From IMG/VR virus record IMGVR_UViG_3300003937_000128, positions 1 to 21,211 of that record: 21,211 bases of DNA; one strand, 5' to 3'. Below are positions 2,305-12,093 of this stretch, piece by piece (within the stretch, counting starts at the first letter, position 1; every line of letters begins with the position of its first letter). Both the position numbers and the translations under genes were made by a program. A model generated the notes under the pieces. It was not told the origin of the DNA. It was given only the letters and a program-made list of their open reading frames with translations, and did no database searches. The stretch is from a virus.

Positions 2305-2463
2305 TTATAAAGCAAACTTGTTACTAATAGCTAGCAAAGTATCATATGGAATCCAGGAAGGTTCTTCATCAACAAATTGTACTTGAACTTCTGTAATTAC
2401 TTCTTCAAGATCTTTGCGATAAGTTTTTCGCGTATTCTTGACATAACTCATTGGACTAATCAT
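2305..2463 (-). CDS. Small hypothetical protein, 52 aa
   Basis: ATG at 2463 overlaps the stop of the 2OG-Fe(II) oxygenase gene by 8 bases (ATGATTAG). The product begins MISPMSYVKNTRKTYRKDLE and continues as a helix and strand (EEVITEVQVQF), then WIPYDTLLAISNKFAL. A second ATG at 2451 is an alternative start. Not recognised. Confidence 0.62.
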   Translation of the reverse strand: MISPMSYVKNTRKTYRKDLEEVITEVQVQFVDEEPSWIPYDTLLAISNKFAL

Positions 2464-2995
2464 AGAGAGATTCCTTGTTAATATTGAATGAAATGATAAT
2501 GCGTTCTATATCTGATTTTACAACTGGCGATGAATGTGCTAGAGCAGATGGAAAAAATATAATATCACCCTCCTTTACATCTGGTATATATTCTATTAAG
2601 TTGCCATTCCAAAAATCAATGTAAGGTGAATAAAACTTTGTAGGTAAATGTGTTTGATCCAACTGAACATAAAGTACAGCACTATATCCTAATGCTCCGT
2701 GATTGTGAAGTTCATGAGATCCTCCTCTCATATACTTCTGTGCCCACATATTCTTAAAATTATATGGAAAAGTAAAAAACTTATCTAATTCATTAAAGGT
2801 TGGGTTAAGTAAATCAAAAATTTTTTCAGAATACTTTGGTTTAATATTTTTTTGATGAAATTTATAAAAATCTGTATAATAATTTCTACCAGTATCATCC
2901 AAATCCATAAGAGAAATAATTTCTTCCTTATGATTACTCCATTCTTCAATAGATTGAGAAAGAATTGGAACTATGAATGCTTCGTGGACTTTCAT
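2456..2995 (-). CDS. Putative 2OG-Fe(II) oxygenase with HxH iron motif
   Basis: This 179-residue protein has the double-stranded beta-helix pattern of 2OG-Fe(II) dioxygenases. The proposed iron ligands are H97 and H99 in SHELHNHGALGYSAVLYV, and H154 in FPSALAHSSPVV. R165 in IERIIISFNI would hold 2-oxoglutarate. Histidine stands where most family members have the aspartate of HxD, as in the phage and marine-bacterial group typified by Pfam 2OG-FeII_Oxy_5. Such enzymes hydroxylate protein or small-molecule substrates; the substrate here is unknown. Unlike the other four oxygenases in the window, this gene sits among tiny genes. It is joined by ATGA to the gene before it and overlaps the next by 8 bases, so it belongs to that operon. 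Confidence 0.8.
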   Translation of the reverse strand: MKVHEAFIVPILSQSIEEWSNHKEEIISLMDLDDTGRNYYTDFYKFHQKNIKPKYSEKIFDLLNPTFNELDKFFTFPYNFKNMWAQKYMRGGSHELHNHGALGYSAVLYVQLDQTHLPTKFYSPYIDFWNGNLIEYIPDVKEGDIIFFPSALAHSSPVVKSDIERIIISFNINKESLYD

Positions 2996-5517: not shown

Positions 5518-5546
5518 ATTATAGCAGATCAGAGCGATCTGATGAA
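5518..5546 (-). promoter_or_regulatory. Extended -10 sigma70-like promoter
   Basis: On the minus strand TGCTATAAT provides an extended -10 (TATAAT at 5523-5518). A weak -35 (TTCATC, 5546-5541) lies 17 bases upstream. It overlaps the 3' end of the nuclease gene and precedes the small-gene operon. The 12 bases TCTGCTATAATA also occur at the promoter before the helicase gene (7249-7238), so the two units may be controlled alike. Confidence 0.68.
5525..5541. repeat. Inverted repeat inside a promoter (operator candidate)
   Basis: CAGATC and GATCTG are perfect inverted 6-base arms around 5 bases, lying between the -35 and -10 of the promoter above. It has no U-tract, so it is not a normal terminator. 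The position suits a repressor site. Both arms contain GATC, a possible adenine-methylation site. It also covers the stop codon of the nuclease gene. Confidence 0.45.
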
Positions 5547-6053
5547 GGATAAATCAAAATCTTCAGATTCTCTAAAGTAATCGCGCACTTCCTCCCGCTC
5601 CTCTAGGCGGTTATAACCAGTGAGAAAGAAGTCAGAGATTTTAGGGTCTGCACTCGCCTTCACACAAGCACCATTGTCTTTGATGTTCTTTAATTTTGAA
5701 TTAGGAATACAACATCCCTTCCCCTTCTTTACATCAGTGATAATAAAGTAATCAGCAAGTTTGTCCTCATATTCTCCCGCCTGACGACGATTCTTAAGAA
5801 TCAGTCCTCTCACCGCCATCTGGGATTTATTCCTAAATTGAGTTACTTTTGATTCATAAGTTGTTCCATTGGGACCAATCAAATCAATGCCAGGAAGATT
5901 TACTCTAGTGAGAAGACCATTACTATACTCAGCAAGTGCTTTCTCTACAAGTTCTCCTGCTTTGGGATACCTTAGATTGTTGTCAGTGTAATCATGAATC
6001 GTTTCTAAGAGTTTAGATAAACGATCAAGTTGAAATGTGTTAAAGTCAATCAT
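5529..6053 (-). CDS. Putative PD-(D/E)XK-type nuclease (restriction-endonuclease-like)
   Basis: In this 174-residue protein the centre, LPGIDLIGPNGTTYESKVTQ (residues 53-72), has the PD-(D/E)XK nuclease pattern. D57 precedes a short hairpin and E67-S-K69 forms the ExK end of the second strand. A following strand, LADYFIITDVKKGKGCCIP, is typical of small type II-like restriction enzyme cores. By analogy D57, E67 and K69 would bind metal and cut DNA. The gene is joined by ATGA to the SF2 helicase before it, suggesting that helicase and nuclease act as one motor-nuclease complex, as R subunits do. The acidic C-terminal tail is unassigned. A transposase-associated or Holliday-junction nuclease is possible, but the helicase and methylase context favours a restriction-like role. 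Confidence 0.62.
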   Translation of the reverse strand: MIDFNTFQLDRLSKLLETIHDYTDNNLRYPKAGELVEKALAEYSNGLLTRVNLPGIDLIGPNGTTYESKVTQFRNKSQMAVRGLILKNRRQAGEYEDKLADYFIITDVKKGKGCCIPNSKLKNIKDNGACVKASADPKISDFFLTGYNRLEEREEVRDYFRESEDFDLSFIRSL

Positions 6054-7213
6054 CGGCGGATTACGGAGATTGCAGGTTCACCCTGCTGGAATACGGTGTC
6101 AACAACTGCCTGAACGCTTCTAGCGGTGCCTACACCCACTCTATCGTAAACAGGAACACAAACCAACCCAAAGGTTTTTTGAACGCCTCCTAGGCGTATC
6201 ACACGCCCGATGGATTGGGAGATTCCAATATAATCCATATTACGCATAAACAACACAGCATCAAGTCCTTTGACGTTGATACCCTCAGAGAGAATAGAGT
6301 GGTGCATCACAACAAAACGAGTGTCATCTTCACCCCAAGCATTCAAAGTTTTGAAAAACTTTTCGCGTGAAACTTTCTGACCATTGATGATTGCACCAGT
6401 TTTGGATGTAATAATCATCCAGTTGTATCCACGTTCTGTAAGTCTTTCACAGAACTCAGATTCAGAAACAAGACGCATAATCTGTTTCGTAGAACGTGCA
6501 GCGATCAAGATCTTTGCAGGTTTTTGATCATCTATTGTCTCAAGCAGATTAGTGGAATCACTCTGCTGATATTCTCCTCTTGGCAATTCTTTGACAATGA
6601 CTTTTGGAGGTAAGATGTAACCTTGATCAACAAGATGAGGAGCACTAACATTACAGATAACTTGTCCATAAACTTGACCATCATTCATTCCTGGTTTGAA
6701 TACAGTAAGACTATGCTTAGGAGTAGCAGTAAAGAAGTAGCAACGATCAGCATCGTTAGAAAAGAACTCAGTGGCAGGAAAAAAGTTACGCTGAACACTG
6801 TTATGTGCTTCGTCAAAGTAAATTGTATTCACTTTGATTTCTGCTTCCATCACACGATGTAGAGAATGATATGTGGTAAAAATAAGTTGCTTACGATATG
6901 CTTGTCTACTCCAGTTACTAATCAGTGCGGGTTTGGTGCTACTGAAGTGCTCAGTTTCCCCACTATGAACGTGAAACACAGCAACATCATCGATGTGCTC
7001 TAAAAACTCTTTACATAGTTGTTGAGCAAGTAGAATCCTAGGAGCAACAACAACCAAAGTGGTACGATAACCATCCAATGCCTGAAAGGTATCGATAGCA
7101 TTTTGTATCATACACATAGTTTTGCCACCACCCGTGGGGATGATGACCTGACCTTTTTCATTCGCCAGCATTGCGTCAACTGCTTGGCGCTGGTGTGGGC
7201 GGAGATTGATCAA
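6050..7213 (-). CDS. SF2 DEAH-box helicase, restriction-subunit-like
   Basis: This 387-residue protein has a complete set of superfamily 2 helicase motifs. These are a Q-like start LRPHQRQAV (residues 4-12), Walker A PTGGGKT (26-32), Ia VVVAPRILLAQQL (54-66), DEAH (134-137), FTAT (161-164), SEGINVKGLD (309-318) and QSIGRVIR (333-340). It uses ATP to translocate on or open DNA. It is short for UvsW of T4-like phages and lacks extra domains, reading more like the helicase core of type III/ISP-like restriction enzymes. The start is TTG at 7213, set by the LRPHQ motif and by AAGGA nine bases upstream; no in-frame ATG precedes it. It has its own extended -10 promoter. ATGA couples it to the nuclease gene. 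A UvsW-like recombination role cannot be excluded. Confidence 0.85.
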   Translation of the reverse strand: MINLRPHQRQAVDAMLANEKGQVIIPTGGGKTMCMIQNAIDTFQALDGYRTTLVVVAPRILLAQQLCKEFLEHIDDVAVFHVHSGETEHFSSTKPALISNWSRQAYRKQLIFTTYHSLHRVMEAEIKVNTIYFDEAHNSVQRNFFPATEFFSNDADRCYFFTATPKHSLTVFKPGMNDGQVYGQVICNVSAPHLVDQGYILPPKVIVKELPRGEYQQSDSTNLLETIDDQKPAKILIAARSTKQIMRLVSESEFCERLTERGYNWMIITSKTGAIINGQKVSREKFFKTLNAWGEDDTRFVVMHHSILSEGINVKGLDAVLFMRNMDYIGISQSIGRVIRLGGVQKTFGLVCVPVYDRVGVGTARSVQAVVDTVFQQGEPAISVIRR

Positions 7214-7294: not shown

Positions 7295-8611
7295 TCAACG
7301 TAAGAGGCAGTAGGTGCCTCTCTGGTTAGGATAGAAATAGATACGTCCATCGTCACGTAAAGCTTGCAATTCTGCAAGGATTGTGCCGCGATAACTCTTT
7401 TCACTCTTAAATTGACTTAGAGCAAAGCGATATGTGCGAACAACATCATATGCTTGCTGTGCAGTAAAGTTCTCATTCACCCCAAAGTTTGATGAAAGCA
7501 ACTGATAAGTAAGTTCCAAGAGATTTACTGATTCATACTTAACAGGTTCTTGAACTTTCTTGGTATTGCGAATCCGAATCAGTTCATCATAACAATCGGT
7601 GTCAACAATCTGAGGTGGGCGAGAACCGAGAACAAGATATTCGCGGAGATCTTCTTCACTATCAGAGTAAACTGAACTCAGATTGTCAAAGATGCCATCA
7701 AGTTCATCCAATCGGTTGTTGATGAGGAGTTCAATCTCATCAGCAGTGTTGATATTGGTGGTATTCACATAGAAGTTCAAACGTGTCTTAATACCTTTTG
7801 CAGCGTTTGCAAAGAAGGTAGGAAGGAAATCACGTAACCAAACTTTCTGACTCGCCTCAAACAAACGATCAACTATTTTGGTAGTAATTTCAGCACCACC
7901 GTCAAGAATGGTAAAGTTACAGTTTGAAAAGAAACGAACCACTTGAGGGCGAGTGTAATTCGTCAAAAACGAATCTTTCACCTCAGAATTAAGAATATTC
8001 TTCTTTAAGTTATACCGAGTGAGTGCAATTTCATGAATTGCAAACGTTTCAACCCATTCGTCAATCATATTTTGGGTGATGTTAATACCCTTTTCTTGTT
8101 GACGTCTAACCCAGGCAATTCCGCGTGCCTTGTAGTCATCATAGTTGGAAGAAGTACCATCAGGTTGTGGTTGCCAAAGCAAACCAACTTCATCCATAAC
8201 GTCACCCTCATCATATCCTTCATTAATGTCATATACATCAATGAGCATATACTTATACCCGTTAGCAGAGTACCACAACCAACGATGATTGCCGTTGATT
8301 AGGAAATCTTCAAGGTCACCATTCTCCTTCCGAAGCATTACAGGAGGGAGTTTTCCTACTTTATATCCCCTTTCAAGGGATTTTCCCACAGTATCAAGAA
8401 CGCGACCATCATTGCCACGCTTTCGTCCAGAATTTTTCTTGAGTTTGATGTCTTTTACATCCACAAAAGTGGTGTAAAGATACTTACAAGAAGCATACTT
8501 AGGGCGTTGATACCCACGAACTTCTTTTACCAGTTCGTTACGCTCTTCCTCTGTCTTAGGATGTGGAACGTAATTTTCAGGAATGTTGATTCCAAAACCT
8601 TTATCAGACAT
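7295..8611 (-). CDS. ParB-like protein with C-terminal DpnI-type winged helix
   Basis: In this 438-residue protein, residues 45-127 resemble the ParB/sulfiredoxin fold. FVDVKDIKLKK is followed by GKLPPVMLRKENG and FLINGNHRWLW (residues 103-113), where GNHRW corresponds to the G-x-(H/R)-R box of ParB-like CTPase or nuclease domains. The last 60 residues, with YRGTILAELQALRDDGRIYF and QRGTYCLL, match the winged helix found at the C-terminus of DpnI and related restriction enzymes (pattern RxxIRQQLQxLRDxGxIxFxGRGxYRL), which reads DNA and in DpnI senses methyladenine. The middle 250 residues are unrecognised. It is a monocistronic unit with its own promoter and terminator, beside an adenine methyltransferase, so a methylation-reading nuclease or regulator is a fair inference. 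The ATG at 8611 lacks a clear ribosome binding site. Confidence 0.7.
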   Translation of the reverse strand: MSDKGFGINIPENYVPHPKTEEERNELVKEVRGYQRPKYASCKYLYTTFVDVKDIKLKKNSGRKRGNDGRVLDTVGKSLERGYKVGKLPPVMLRKENGDLEDFLINGNHRWLWYSANGYKYMLIDVYDINEGYDEGDVMDEVGLLWQPQPDGTSSNYDDYKARGIAWVRRQQEKGINITQNMIDEWVETFAIHEIALTRYNLKKNILNSEVKDSFLTNYTRPQVVRFFSNCNFTILDGGAEITTKIVDRLFEASQKVWLRDFLPTFFANAAKGIKTRLNFYVNTTNINTADEIELLINNRLDELDGIFDNLSSVYSDSEEDLREYLVLGSRPPQIVDTDCYDELIRIRNTKKVQEPVKYESVNLLELTYQLLSSNFGVNENFTAQQAYDVVRTYRFALSQFKSEKSYRGTILAELQALRDDGRIYFYPNQRGTYCLLR

Positions 8612-8707: not shown

Positions 8708-9109
8708 TTAGAAGAACTTATCTAACCCAACTGGTTCCCCAAAGGAATAATCATACTCTAGTGCATCAGCACACACATAGTGTGGGTGAGTGACATCAAC
8801 ACTAAGATTGGCACACAATTCCTTATGATTATCTTCCATCATCTCTACTGCATATAACATATGATCCAAAATATGTTCTTCGGTATGATATTCTAGTAGT
8901 TTTTTCTTGAGTGCAATCAAAAAGTTTCCACATCCAGCAGAGTTGTCAATAAAGGTGCTCTCTGGATCTTGTAGTAATTTAATATCAATCTCATCAATCA
9001 TACTCTCAACAAGTTCCATCGGAGTGAATACTTCTTGAGTCTCTTTAATTCTTTCATCAGATCTTTGAATATTAGATCCGACATCAATATTATGTTTATT
9101 CTTTGCCAT
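8708..9109 (-). CDS. N6-adenine DNA methyltransferase, AdoMet-binding half
   Basis: This 133-residue protein holds the first half of an N6-adenine methyltransferase core. It has TQEVFTPMELVESMIDEI (the N-terminal lead-in of type I/IIG-like methylases) and motif I FIDNSAGCGNFLIAL (residues 53-67), which binds S-adenosylmethionine. Motif II AVEMMEDN and a motif III-like VCADALEYD follow. It stops at GLDKFF, just where the catalytic NPPY strand would come next, and it has no motif IV. The NPPY half is encoded by the preceding gene, overlapping by 14 bases. The start is ATG 9109 with GAGG upstream, not the longer GTG at 9124. The two proteins would have to assemble to methylate DNA. Confidence 0.8.
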   Translation of the reverse strand: MAKNKHNIDVGSNIQRSDERIKETQEVFTPMELVESMIDEIDIKLLQDPESTFIDNSAGCGNFLIALKKKLLEYHTEEHILDHMLYAVEMMEDNHKELCANLSVDVTHPHYVCADALEYDYSFGEPVGLDKFF

Positions 9110-9683
9110 CTTTTTCCTCAACACATTTCATATAGGTTGTAATCAAGTCGTTCTTTCCAAAATGATATCGACCATTGCATTGACCTGCTGCTTCTCTAAA
9201 CTTATCAGCAAATTCTACCATATTATCCACTACTTTAGAATCTCTTACTCTGATGAAATGATGACCCTTAGCATAGTGAGTAAAGTTCTCTGTTTTAACT
9301 CTACCACTAGGACCACAACCATACTCACCAACAAATACATCTGCTTCATCTCTTCTCTCATAAGGAAGAAACTCGAAGTCAGGATGTTCTCTCATCATAG
9401 GAATCTCACCAACTCCTATTGCAAATCTTGAAGTATTTTTTACTTTCCAATGTTGTTTTACTGCACTAATACCACCAGGAAAAGTAGAAGGATCAAGATC
9501 TTCATCAACATCACAATGAAGATGTCCCACAATCTTATTCAAACAGGAAGGTTTCCGCACCGAAGTAGGAAGAACAGCACGAATATCATCAGTATGTTCT
9601 GACAACTTATTAAGAAACTTAATAGCTAGATTCCCACCCACACCATATGGTGGATTAATAATAGCAAGAGTAAACTTTTTCAT
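9096..9683 (-). CDS. N6-adenine DNA methyltransferase, catalytic NPPY half
   Basis: This 195-residue protein begins MKKFTLAIINPPYGVGGNLA, carrying motif IV (NPPY, residues 10-13) almost at its N-terminus, where it binds the flipped adenine. AVLPTSVRK is like the later core strands. The remainder, with HWKVKNTSRFAIG and a region of mixed strands to residue 180, may be the end of the core and the target-recognition part. Motif I is missing and is supplied by the next gene. ATG at 9683 shares ATGA with the upstream 2OG-Fe(II) oxygenase, so the pair is in the oxygenase operon. The sequence target is unknown. A solitary protective or regulatory methylase is an alternative to a restriction partner. 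Confidence 0.78.
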   Translation of the reverse strand: MKKFTLAIINPPYGVGGNLAIKFLNKLSEHTDDIRAVLPTSVRKPSCLNKIVGHLHCDVDEDLDPSTFPGGISAVKQHWKVKNTSRFAIGVGEIPMMREHPDFEFLPYERRDEADVFVGEYGCGPSGRVKTENFTHYAKGHHFIRVRDSKVVDNMVEFADKFREAAGQCNGRYHFGKNDLITTYMKCVEEKDGKE

Positions 9684-10189
9684 TCTATGTTATTATACTT
9701 TATGGCAAGTGTAAATCTATAACGATTCCTAAAAGAAGTTGCTCTGTGTGGAATATCTGCACTAAAGTATAGCAGACGATTGGGTAAAGGTGCAACACCT
9801 ACAAAGTTACCGTTAATATAAAACTCTGTTGCCCCACCATCATCTAGATCCCAAGTATCATTTACATAATACAAACACGTTATATCTGAATGAATGCTAC
9901 TGTCAGTGTGAAAGTATGGATTTTCTGATGGGGCAAACGAATTGACATACATTCGATCTAAAACTAAACCCTGAGCAAAAGGTTCAGTTTTTTCTTTGAA
10001 GAATTTATAGATGTCTTCAGTCTCATCAATATCACAAACCATACCTGTTGGTGGTAACTCAGGGCGATCATATTCACCGTAACCATATTTTGCATTAATG
10101 CAATAATATAAAACAGACTTATGATCTTCTTCTGTCAAAAAATTATCTTCAACATTTACAATATTATCCGTTCCACTCTTGGTCTCCAT
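9680..10189 (-). CDS. Putative 2OG-Fe(II) oxygenase with HxD motif
   Basis: This 169-residue protein has the core of a 2OG-Fe(II) dioxygenase. Its iron ligands are H94-T-D96 in NPYFHTDSSIHSDIT and H148 in ADIPHRATSF. R156 or R158 in RNRYRFTLAIKY would bind 2-oxoglutarate. DDGGATEFYINGN between them is the GGxTxF strand typical of prolyl-4-hydroxylase-like enzymes. The gene overlaps the preceding oxygenase by 26 bases and is joined by ATGA to the NPPY methyltransferase half, so it is co-translated with both. Possible substrates are a tail-fibre or adhesin protein, host proteins, or methylated DNA bases; only the operon context hints at the last. Confidence 0.85.
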   Translation of the reverse strand: METKSGTDNIVNVEDNFLTEEDHKSVLYYCINAKYGYGEYDRPELPPTGMVCDIDETEDIYKFFKEKTEPFAQGLVLDRMYVNSFAPSENPYFHTDSSIHSDITCLYYVNDTWDLDDGGATEFYINGNFVGVAPLPNRLLYFSADIPHRATSFRNRYRFTLAIKYNNIE

Positions 10190-10796
10190 ACTCTAATACT
10201 CTCAAATTAAAAGAAAATGTAACTCTAGGATAATCAGTTTTAACACAAGGTAAAACTCGATGTTGTAAATATGTAGGAAACATTAAAAATGATCCTTCTT
10301 CAACGTTTGGCACATAATATTCACCAACCCAATCCCTTTCCATCGCAATACTTAATTGACGAATCTGTGCGATAGGATCTCTAAATTCTGGGGGAGTATG
10401 TTCTCCTTTATTGTAAGATAGAAAGTGAATACAAGACCAATGAAAAGGATTTAGTGCTTCTCCAATATGATCATGAAGTTCTTGATATTCACCATCAGTA
10501 TATACATTATACCATATATTATCGTCAACTAATCGAACTCTATATTTTTTATCAAAAAACTCATCTAAACATTTACTATATTCAGATTCAAGAATAGATC
10601 TATATTTTTCAATAATATCAATCCCTTCAGGTTCACTTTGAAAAGAAGTTTTAAGTTTATTTGTACTCCAAGTTTCTGGAGGAGTAAGATATTCAGATGC
10701 TTCCATTATCTCAGATAACATAAGATTCTTAAGATAATCATTATCTGAGATTTCTGTCTGGTATATTGTTACCGGAAATAAATCTAAAGCTTTCAT
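10164..10796 (-). CDS. Putative 2OG-Fe(II) oxygenase with HxH motif
   Basis: This 210-residue protein opens with LDLFPVTIYQTEI, the start typical of the Pfam 2OG-FeII_Oxy_5-like group. It contains W-YNVYTDGEYQELHDHIGEA with H108 and H110 as iron ligands, H179 in FPTYLQHRVLP and R191 in YPRVTFSFNLR. Histidine replaces the usual aspartate, as in the oxygenase at 2456-2995, so these two may be related. It is the first gene behind a near-consensus sigma70 promoter, with AAGGA just before the ATG. Substrate unknown. Confidence 0.84.
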   Translation of the reverse strand: MKALDLFPVTIYQTEISDNDYLKNLMLSEIMEASEYLTPPETWSTNKLKTSFQSEPEGIDIIEKYRSILESEYSKCLDEFFDKKYRVRLVDDNIWYNVYTDGEYQELHDHIGEALNPFHWSCIHFLSYNKGEHTPPEFRDPIAQIRQLSIAMERDWVGEYYVPNVEEGSFLMFPTYLQHRVLPCVKTDYPRVTFSFNLRVLEYGDQEWNG

Positions 10797-10847: not shown

Positions 10848-11510
10848 TTATGTGTGACTAAAGAAACTTGTGATCGCATATCGACCATAACCATCATAGT
10901 AATCAGAGTTTTCTATTTTTACTTCATTCACTCCGTGTTGTACCCAACCAGGAAAAATTATGGTGGAATTATCTTGACAATCAAATGTATAATCATACTT
11001 TGGAAAAATTAACTCTCCACCAGTAAACTTTTTAGGTTTCCTATAAAAATATGAAAATGCCAGATAGTTGATAGTTTTATCTGTATGTGGTTCATAGTAT
11101 TCTCCATCGTGATAATATCTTACTTTAGTTACATCGTGAGTGGTCTCTGTTGCAAGAGAAACGCAATCATGTATTTTTGAGAAGATATCTAATACACCAC
11201 TATCAAATAATTTTCTATTTACAGTTAATATATTTGATAAAGATCTATAATTAGGAGAACCTACAATATCTTCACGAGTATTATCACTATAATCTTTATA
11301 CAGTTGATCTAACATAATTGCTTTGGAATTTGTAGCATCAATAATTCCACCAAAGTCTTTTGCTTCTAGCAATTTTCCAGGTTTTGTATAAAAATTTAGT
11401 TCTTCCCAAATGAGATTCAGTTCTTCTTTATTATAAAAATTATGTAAGACCAGATGTGGAAATGGTTCTTCAAAAACATCTGCTTCTATTTGTTCATTTT
11501 TGTTCTTCAT
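10848..11510 (-). CDS. Putative 2OG-Fe(II) oxygenase with HxD motif
   Basis: In this 220-residue protein the prolyl-4-hydroxylase-like core is clear. VRYYHDGEYYEPHTDKTINY gives H142-T-D144, FTGGELIFPKYDY is the central strand, and NSTIIFPGWVQHGVNEV gives H192. GRYAITSFF with R210 is the 2-oxoglutarate site. The N-terminal 120 residues (with FPHLVLHNFYNKEELN) match the usual lead-in of phage and marine bacterial oxygenases of this type. It overlaps the preceding oxygenase gene by 17 bases and lies downstream of the late box at 12120-12113, so it is probably made late with the virion proteins. Confidence 0.86.
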   Translation of the reverse strand: MKNKNEQIEADVFEEPFPHLVLHNFYNKEELNLIWEELNFYTKPGKLLEAKDFGGIIDATNSKAIMLDQLYKDYSDNTREDIVGSPNYRSLSNILTVNRKLFDSGVLDIFSKIHDCVSLATETTHDVTKVRYYHDGEYYEPHTDKTINYLAFSYFYRKPKKFTGGELIFPKYDYTFDCQDNSTIIFPGWVQHGVNEVKIENSDYYDGYGRYAITSFFSHT

Positions 11511-12093
11511 ATTCCTCTGGATCAGATTGTAACCACCCCCAAGATGTTAAAAGATATTTTGTTCCCCCAATAGGAGCATTTCCTCGATGAGTATGTGTAA
11601 AGTTTGTAGGGAATATAATGACATCACCTCTCTTTGCCTTTTCTCGTTTATTCTGATATAAGAATTCTGTTTCTCCTCCTTCAAAATCATCATTCAGATA
11701 TAATTGAACGACAAATATTCTTCCTGTAGAAGTAAGTGAACTACTTTCATAGTGCCAAGTATGAAAACCACCTCCAGGTGGTATCTTTTTTAATTTACAA
11801 TCATAAAGTAAGAATCTAGATCTATTAAGAAGACTATATGTCTCTAGATAGTCATTAACACAAGGTGTAATCTTAGGTAATACAGACTCAACAATACGAT
11901 GTGATGAATTTAGATCTAACTCGTATTTGGGTGTATTTGATATATTTTTTGTAATATGATCTTCTAAATGTAATCTACTCTTGTCATAGAACATACATCC
12001 ATCATTCTCAAGAAAATGTATGTAATCTATAATTTCTGAGCAATCTTCTTTACTAAAGACACCTTCATATCGGTGTATGAAATCGGTGAGCAT
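11494..12093 (-). CDS. Putative 2OG-Fe(II) oxygenase with HxE-like motif
   Basis: This 199-residue protein contains PPGGGFHTWHYESSS (H114-Y-E116, glutamate in place of the usual aspartate, with H111 nearby), DDFEGGETEFLYQNKR, and RGDVIIFPTNFTHTHRGNAP. H167 or H169 is the distal iron ligand and K179 in GTKYLLTSWGW would bind 2-oxoglutarate, as lysine does in prolyl 4-hydroxylases. The HYE motif, from memory, recurs in cyanophage members, so activity is likely kept. It is the first gene after a late box 20 bases upstream of its ATG and directly follows the glycine-rich adhesin gene, making virion proteins plausible substrates. Confidence 0.84.
   Translation of the reverse strand: MLTDFIHRYEGVFSKEDCSEIIDYIHFLENDGCMFYDKSRLHLEDHITKNISNTPKYELDLNSSHRIVESVLPKITPCVNDYLETYSLLNRSRFLLYDCKLKKIPPGGGFHTWHYESSSLTSTGRIFVVQLYLNDDFEGGETEFLYQNKREKAKRGDVIIFPTNFTHTHRGNAPIGGTKYLLTSWGWLQSDPEEYEEQK

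What the first reader, a model, noticed from the sequence alone, without database searches (positions are those of the whole stretch)
8708..9683. Adenine methyltransferase split into two genes in swapped order
The gene transcribed first starts with LAIINPPYG (catalytic motif IV). The gene transcribed second carries EVFTP and the AdoMet-binding motif DNSAGCGNF and ends at GLDKFF, exactly where the NPPY strand would follow in a normal enzyme. Joined as second-then-first they would make an ordinary gamma-type N6-adenine methylase; in the genome the order is reversed. A sequencing frameshift cannot produce this. It looks like gene-level circular permutation, perhaps from tandem duplication followed by loss of opposite halves, leaving an obligate two-subunit enzyme.
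Basis: partly seen in the sequence, partly recalled or inferred. Interest (0 to 1): 0.82.

Follow-up and report, generated by a model that had tools for sequence, protein, structure and literature searches.

The report
Two-gene phage DNA adenine methylase
This marine phage makes a DNA-methylating enzyme as two separate proteins, one that should hold the methyl donor and one that carries the catalytic site, and hundreds of relatives do the same with the genes in this order, which points to a widespread two-part enzyme whose catalytic half can be exchanged.

Summary
On the minus strand, a 195-aa protein that starts at motif IV (FTLAIINPPYG) is followed, overlapping by 14 nt, by a 133-aa protein with motif X (EVFTP) and motif I (DNSAGCGNF) that ends where NPPY should follow. 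It is no artefact: of 149 distinct relatives of the small protein in IMG/VR, about 132 have an NPPY gene upstream, none is fused, and both genes are under purifying selection (omega about 0.1). P-SSM2, S-CAM7 and S-SKS1 show the same pair.

Best explanation: a two-subunit N6-adenine methyltransferase, with a small AdoMet-binding subunit plus a catalytic subunit. Aeromonas phages carry both halves fused in this same permuted order; that model matches beta-class methylases over both halves. The closest experimentally active relative is M1-2.DrdVI (two genes, GCAGCC, m6A), in the opposite gene order. Many catalytic partners keep a Rossmann half with a spoiled motif I; the window type has lost it. 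Gene order is therefore secondary, and simple duplication with loss of opposite halves is not proved. In phage ACG-2014f one AdoMet subunit stays constant while catalytic cassettes are exchanged, and another NPPY-only chain lies 100 kb away. Methylation by the window pair is untested.

The parts
9096..9683 (-). catalytic subunit gene (195 aa): motif IV NPPY to motif VIII and C-terminal region; no motif X/I
   Evidence: aligns with residues ~64-250 of the L034 model, which matches M.TaqI
9645..9656 (-). motif IV NPPY (residues 10-13)
   Evidence: sequence; near-invariant in alignment A7 (a minority of relatives read NYPY or NFPY)
8708..9109 (-). AdoMet-binding subunit gene (133 aa from ATG 9109; GTG 9124 also possible): motifs X, I, II, III
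   Evidence: nearly all relatives start just before KNKHN
9020..9034 (-). motif X EVFTP
   Evidence: sequence; invariant in A1
8921..8947 (-). motif I DNSAGCGNF
   Evidence: sequence; D, AG, G, N, F invariant in A1
9096..9109 (-). 14-nt overlap of the two genes, with GAGG six nt before the ATG: likely translational coupling
   Evidence: sequence; overlaps of 4-20 nt between the pair in P-SSM2, S-CAM7 and S-SKS1
7295..8611 (-). linked gene, 438 aa, ParB-like N-terminus and DpnI_C-like winged helix (weak)
   Evidence: found next to 44 of 149 related loci
6050..7213 (-). linked SF2 helicase (ResIII)
   Evidence: Pfam E 8e-17; a helicase near 119 of 149 related loci
5529..6053 (-). linked 174-aa protein with a PD-(D/E)XK-like pattern (GIDLIGPNGTTYESK)
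   Evidence: sequence only; no family hit; homologues in 6 loci, beside the helicase in those inspected

Best explanation
The two genes encode one N6-adenine DNA methyltransferase made of two subunits. The small protein supplies the AdoMet-binding half of the Rossmann fold (motifs X, I-III; strands beta-1 to beta-3). The larger one supplies the catalytic half (motif IV NPPY to VIII; strands beta-4 to beta-7) and what corresponds to the small recognition domain of M.TaqI. They should pair through the beta-1/beta-4 edge. They belong to a wider family with a separate, nearly constant AdoMet subunit that serves different catalytic chains; many of those chains keep their own half-fold with a spoiled motif I, and the window type has lost it entirely. 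The catalytic-first order is the usual phage order and matters little for a two-chain enzyme; fused in that order it gives a beta-class-like permuted chain. With the linked helicase and nuclease-like genes it probably marks phage DNA as part of a phage-borne restriction-modification cassette. Shown by sequence: split, conservation, selection, fused relatives, spoiled motif I. Inferred: physical pairing, methylation, restriction role.
For: Conserved pair in about 132 of 149 distinct IMG/VR loci and in complete cyanophages. Purifying selection on both genes; pairwise distances of the two correlate, r = 0.85, 0 of 1000 permutations as high. Single-chain permuted relatives: PX29p083, phiAS5_215, Aeh1, Ah1, ZPAH1 orf67; a split catalytic chain (L145) aligns with PX29 residues 3-264 (E 1e-21) and the window AdoMet subunit with 282-362 (E 2e-13). 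The PX29 model matches beta-class methylases over both halves: M.MboIIA Z 10.6 over model 1-371, also CcrM and RsrI. L034, a sibling with an N-half, folds as a full M.TaqI-like enzyme (pLDDT 93; Z 12.2 over 231 residues). Bacterial two-gene relatives: the window subunit aligns with the first DrdVI methylase gene (E 6e-11), and M1-2.DrdVI genes were cloned and expressed in E. coli ER2796 and matched to m6A at GCAGCC (PMC6430315). Escherichia phages with an intact NPPY relative are absent from the list of phages with an AdoMet subunit. ACG-2014f genomes without an adjacent catalytic gene have a motif-I-less NPPY gene 100 kb away.
Against: The PX29 model is weak (pLDDT 57, pTM 0.52). In relatives with an N-half, that half docks on the catalytic half in the model, so where the trans subunit binds there is unclear. 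No biochemistry on any phage pair was found. That the 212-aa and 539-aa genes of pDrdVI are M1 and M2, and that each alone is inactive, is inferred, not read. Two loci (L157, L162) show an AdoMet subunit without a nearby catalytic gene. The mirror-tree signal is partly plain co-inheritance.
Confidence: 0.8

Rival explanations
1. Gene-level circular permutation in this lineage: an intact gamma-type gene was duplicated in tandem and opposite halves were lost, leaving IV then X-I as two genes.
For: Partners with a spoiled cis motif I next to an intact trans motif I look like half-way stages; single-chain permuted relatives exist.
Against: The two halves have different nearest relatives; AdoMet subunits stay 54-98% identical beside very different catalytic families; bacteria have the two-subunit state in the opposite order; L034 and L181, with an N-half, nest inside the short forms, so loss is not a simple one-way series.
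Confidence: 0.25
2. Only one half is functional; the other is a relic, or the small protein acts on its own, for example as an AdoMet-binding regulator.
For: Some ACG-2014f isolates and L157, L162 have the small gene without a catalytic gene beside it.
Against: dN/dS about 0.1 in both genes; near-invariant NPPY and motif I; in the ACG-2014f case a motif-I-less NPPY gene is present elsewhere.
Confidence: 0.06
3. Frameshift, assembly error, or programmed frameshifting that yields one permuted chain.
For: The ORFs overlap and a +1 shift in the overlap would join them.
Against: The NPPY half comes first, so no indel restores a normal-order enzyme; overlap length and sequence vary between relatives, and several pairs are separated by hundreds of nt.
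Confidence: 0.03
4. The pair is a self-protecting methylase only; helicase and nuclease-like genes nearby are unrelated replication or host-DNA-degradation genes.
For: The helicase is a separate small protein without a known restriction domain; the nuclease call rests on a short pattern; neighbours vary.
Against: Relatives are fused to or overlap with nuclease/helicase genes (MA01, L127, L189, L195), and DrdVI relatives have a GIY-YIG helicase gene beside them.
Confidence: 0.4

Closest known systems
M1-2.DrdVI (plasmid pDrdVI, Deinococcus wulumuqiensis 479; PMC6430315)
   Same: Two methylase genes: a short one with motif X and canonical motif I, and a long one with NPPY and a spoiled motif I (DPCTKSGVF); sequence homology of the small subunit; a helicase gene follows; m6A activity shown in E. 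coli for DrdVI
   Different: Order is AdoMet subunit first; the catalytic chain keeps its pseudo-half; GIY-YIG fused to helicase; the window catalytic chain is trimmed to NPPY onward
gamma-class N6-adenine methylases (M.TaqI; Eco57I and N6_Mtase Pfam families)
   Same: NPPY and EVFTP/motif I sequences; sibling L034 superposes on M.TaqI 40-410
   Different: Two chains, gene order IV then X-I
beta-class amino-methylases (M.MboIIA, CcrM, RsrI)
   Same: Motif order IV...X-I; the single-chain Aeromonas relative matches them over both halves
   Different: Gamma-like motif sequences; the window form is two proteins
M.AquI and M.EcoHK31I (split cytosine-C5 methylases; PMC3404938)
   Same: One methylase made of two polypeptides in nature
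   Different: C5 enzymes; split in the variable region or around motif IX, not between AdoMet and catalytic halves
phAPEC8 gp188 and XbC2 gp125 (intact phage relatives of the catalytic half)
   Same: Homologous from NPPY to the C-terminus
   Different: Motifs X and I in cis, normal order

Membership tests
DrdVI-type two-gene m6A methylase | separate small protein with motif X and canonical motif I | tested here: met
   window subunit vs first DrdVI methylase gene E 6e-11; EVFTP and DNSAGCGNF
DrdVI-type two-gene m6A methylase | NPPY chain without a canonical motif I | tested here: met
   window NPPY protein begins at beta-4
DrdVI-type two-gene m6A methylase | catalytic chain keeps a pseudo AdoMet half | tested here: not met
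   absent in the window; present in siblings L034, L181
DrdVI-type two-gene m6A methylase | gene order AdoMet subunit, catalytic subunit, GIY-YIG-helicase | tested here: not met
   order reversed; helicase linked but without a GIY-YIG hit
DrdVI-type two-gene m6A methylase | m6A methylation needing both genes | not testable with these tools
   no assay possible
gamma-class N6-adenine methylase | motifs X-I-IV in this order in one chain | tested here: not met
   two ORFs, IV first
gamma-class N6-adenine methylase | gamma-type motif sequences and M.TaqI-like fold | tested here: met
   PF02384 above cut-off; sibling model Z 12.2 with M.TaqI; the window protein itself was not folded
beta-class amino-methylase | order IV...X-I forming one Rossmann core | tested here: inconclusive
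   met by the single-chain relative's low-confidence model; the window pair itself not modelled
split C5 methylases such as M.AquI | two polypeptides forming one C5 enzyme | tested here: not met
   amino-methylase motifs and profiles, not C5

The most novel reading that the evidence does not exclude
A conserved stand-alone AdoMet-binding subunit is a shared part that several interchangeable catalytic/specificity chains plug into, some encoded in swapped cassettes beside it and some 100 kb away in the same phage genome; the split exists because it lets phages exchange methylation specificity (and linked nucleases) while keeping one cofactor half.
Probability: 0.4. Interest if true: 0.82.

Novelty: new variant of a known kind. 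Interest (0 to 1): 0.63.

Why it matters
A single Rossmann methylase fold is divided between two genes exactly at its cofactor/catalysis boundary, in many marine and enteric T4-like phages and in some bacteria. It gives visible states (intact cis half, spoiled cis half, no cis half, fused again in permuted order) relevant to how the permuted classes of DNA methylases arose, and makes testable whether one cofactor subunit can serve several catalytic chains. It also gives a likely function to phage families now listed as unknown (phrog_4376, phrog_5172).

Tried and rejected
Frameshift or assembly artefact: rejected, see rivals. First attempts at the PX29 alignment mixed the halves; repaired before folding. 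Near-DNA search of phages with the window: no match. Scan with the Klebsiella small subunit in viral contigs: none. A one-way 'N-half loss' story: weakened by the tree, whose intact outgroups sit on very long branches. Own-genome test for a full-length methylase: not possible, the record is only the 21-kb window; complete P-SSM2 has one copy of each half plus a gene annotated Dam. Paper searches for a split phage adenine methylase found none, but the library is open-access only.

Full report
What is there. The window (a 21-kb virus record) is T4-like cyanophage DNA by its relatives. On the minus strand 9096-9683 encodes a 195-aa protein beginning MKKFTLAIINPPYG, and 8708-9124 encodes EVFTP...DNSAGCGNF...GLDKFF. 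Relatives of the second start at the inner ATG (9109), giving 133 aa and a 14-nt overlap. The first ORF's ATG overlaps the stop of the gene before it, so the genes are probably translationally coupled.

Each half has one half of a methylase and no more. The second protein passes PF02384 N6_Mtase and covers all of phrog_4376 (unknown function); the first matches phrog_5172 only from position 92. Intact phage relatives of the first, phAPEC8 gp188 and XbC2 gp125, carry YYTN...EPSAGEGAF (or EPSAGGGAF) and then NPPF in one chain; aligned to them the window protein starts exactly at the NPPY strand.

It is conserved. P-SSM2 036/037, S-CAM7 075/076 and S-SKS1 215/214 have the same order with 4-20 nt overlap. 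IMG/VR holds about 349 relatives of the small protein. Three sets of best 80 gave 149 distinct proteins: an NPPY gene lies upstream, overlapping or one small gene away, in 125 by pattern and 7 more by eye; 15 cannot be tested; 2 have none in reach; none is fused. Both genes have dN/dS about 0.1 and their distances correlate (r 0.85, 0 of 1000 permutations), though co-inheritance alone gives part of that.

The upstream partner varies while the small subunit hardly does. Besides the short window type there are catalytic chains with a 75-aa N-half whose motif I is non-canonical in several ways (GDPxGxHS, LAKEPGxG, GVFDTFLTL, PKDAYGRF, NALSGSIA), and chains of 1,041-1,148 aa in which that part follows a helicase region. 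L034, a close sibling with the GDPTGLHS half, folds with high confidence (pLDDT 93) and matches M.TaqI 40-410 over 231 residues, Z 12.2: its N-half is a Rossmann half without the GxG motif and without motif X. The window protein equals the rest. In the catalytic-chain tree L034 and L181 nest among short forms, so halves have been lost or regained more than once and the direction is open.

The swapped order also exists in one chain. Aeromonas phages PX29, phiAS5, Aeh1, Ah1 and ZPAH1 encode proteins of about 390-415 aa that begin at NPPY and end EFFTP...FEPSCGDGN or a close variant. A split cyanophage catalytic chain aligns with the first part (E 1e-21) and the window AdoMet subunit with the last (E 2e-13). 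The PX29 model is of low confidence (pLDDT 57) but its best solved matches (top 19, Z 8.4-10.6) are amino-methylases of the beta-class order and its N4-cytosine relatives, and run through both halves. So permuted halves can form one core, in beta-class order although the motifs are gamma-like. Klebsiella PKO111, Shigella PSD9, Vibrio phi-ST2 and Aeromonas Ah1 have further split, swapped pairs, most with a GIY-YIG-like domain on the catalytic chain (Pfam hit for PKO111, the others judged by eye).

Bacteria have it too, the other way round. Actinobacteria (13 of 396 sampled genomes with a short form at E < 1e-15) and 71 plasmid records carry a 210-310-aa AdoMet subunit; in those inspected it is followed by an NPPY chain that has a spoiled motif I (DPxTKSGVF), or by a helicase whose C-terminus carries the spoiled half and then a chain starting at NPPY. 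One of these plasmids is pDrdVI. Fomenkov et al. list M1-2.DrdVI, GCAGCC, m6A, as cloned and expressed in E. coli (PMC6430315); Bibersteinia has a relative resembling M1.DrdVI at one end and M2.DrdVI at the other, near a GIY-YIG translocase (PMC4996451). The window subunit aligns with the short DrdVI gene at E 6e-11. That these two genes are M1 and M2 is my reading of gene order and length. So a two-gene m6A methylase of this kind is known and active; the phage form differs in order, in trimming and in neighbours.

A shared subunit? In phage ACG-2014f the AdoMet gene is constant (98% identical between two isolates) while the DNA next to it is replaced exactly at a repeated ~70-bp terminator/promoter-like stretch: nuclease-like gene + catalytic chain + helicase in 14 records, GIY-type helicase + a different catalytic chain in 2, a nuclease-like gene in US24, nothing in C7 and US4. 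C7 still has a 301-aa protein starting MKFDVVIGNPPYQ, without motif I, 100 kb away, identical in C90. This fits one cofactor subunit serving several catalytic chains, but no complex has been shown.

Function. The window pair is followed by a ParB-like/winged-helix protein, an SF2 helicase and a PD-(D/E)XK-like protein; a helicase lies near 119 of 149 related loci. Together with DrdVI and the fused MA01-type enzymes this suggests phage-borne restriction-modification; protection of phage DNA alone remains possible.

Weighing. Two-subunit methylase: about 0.8. Novelty: a new variant of a known kind, because DrdVI already shows an active two-gene enzyme.

Noticed in passing
L005, L265-L270 (Synechococcus phage ACG-2014f isolates): Methylase/nuclease/helicase cassettes are exchanged beside a constant AdoMet-subunit gene at a ~70-bp terminator/promoter-like repeat that recurs in the region; an NPPY-only chain lies 100 kb away.
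   Followed up: partly
window 2456-2995, 9680-10189, 10164-10796, 10848-11510, 11494-12093 (-): Five ORFs that look by eye like 2OG-Fe(II) oxygenases, four of them consecutive and upstream of the methylase pair.
   Followed up: no
window 5529-6053 (-): 174-aa protein with a GIDLIGPNGTTYESK pattern, overlapping the helicase stop by 4 nt, without any convincing family hit.
   Followed up: partly
L120:1997-3484 (Klebsiella phage PKO111 gp114): Protein in phrog_314 'homing endonuclease' is a GIY-YIG domain fused to an NPPF methylase half; with gp115 it lies between primase and a pyrophosphohydrolase gene.
   Followed up: partly
L240:6642-9956 (Nocardioides kribbensis): Helicase whose C-terminus carries LVFTP and a spoiled motif I (FADLFSTAGLF), followed by a gene that starts at NPPY: the pseudo-half sits on a different protein.
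   Followed up: partly
L003 and L121 (Synechococcus phage S-CAM7): Two different split methylase systems in one phage species (gp055-057 type and 075/076 type).
   Followed up: partly
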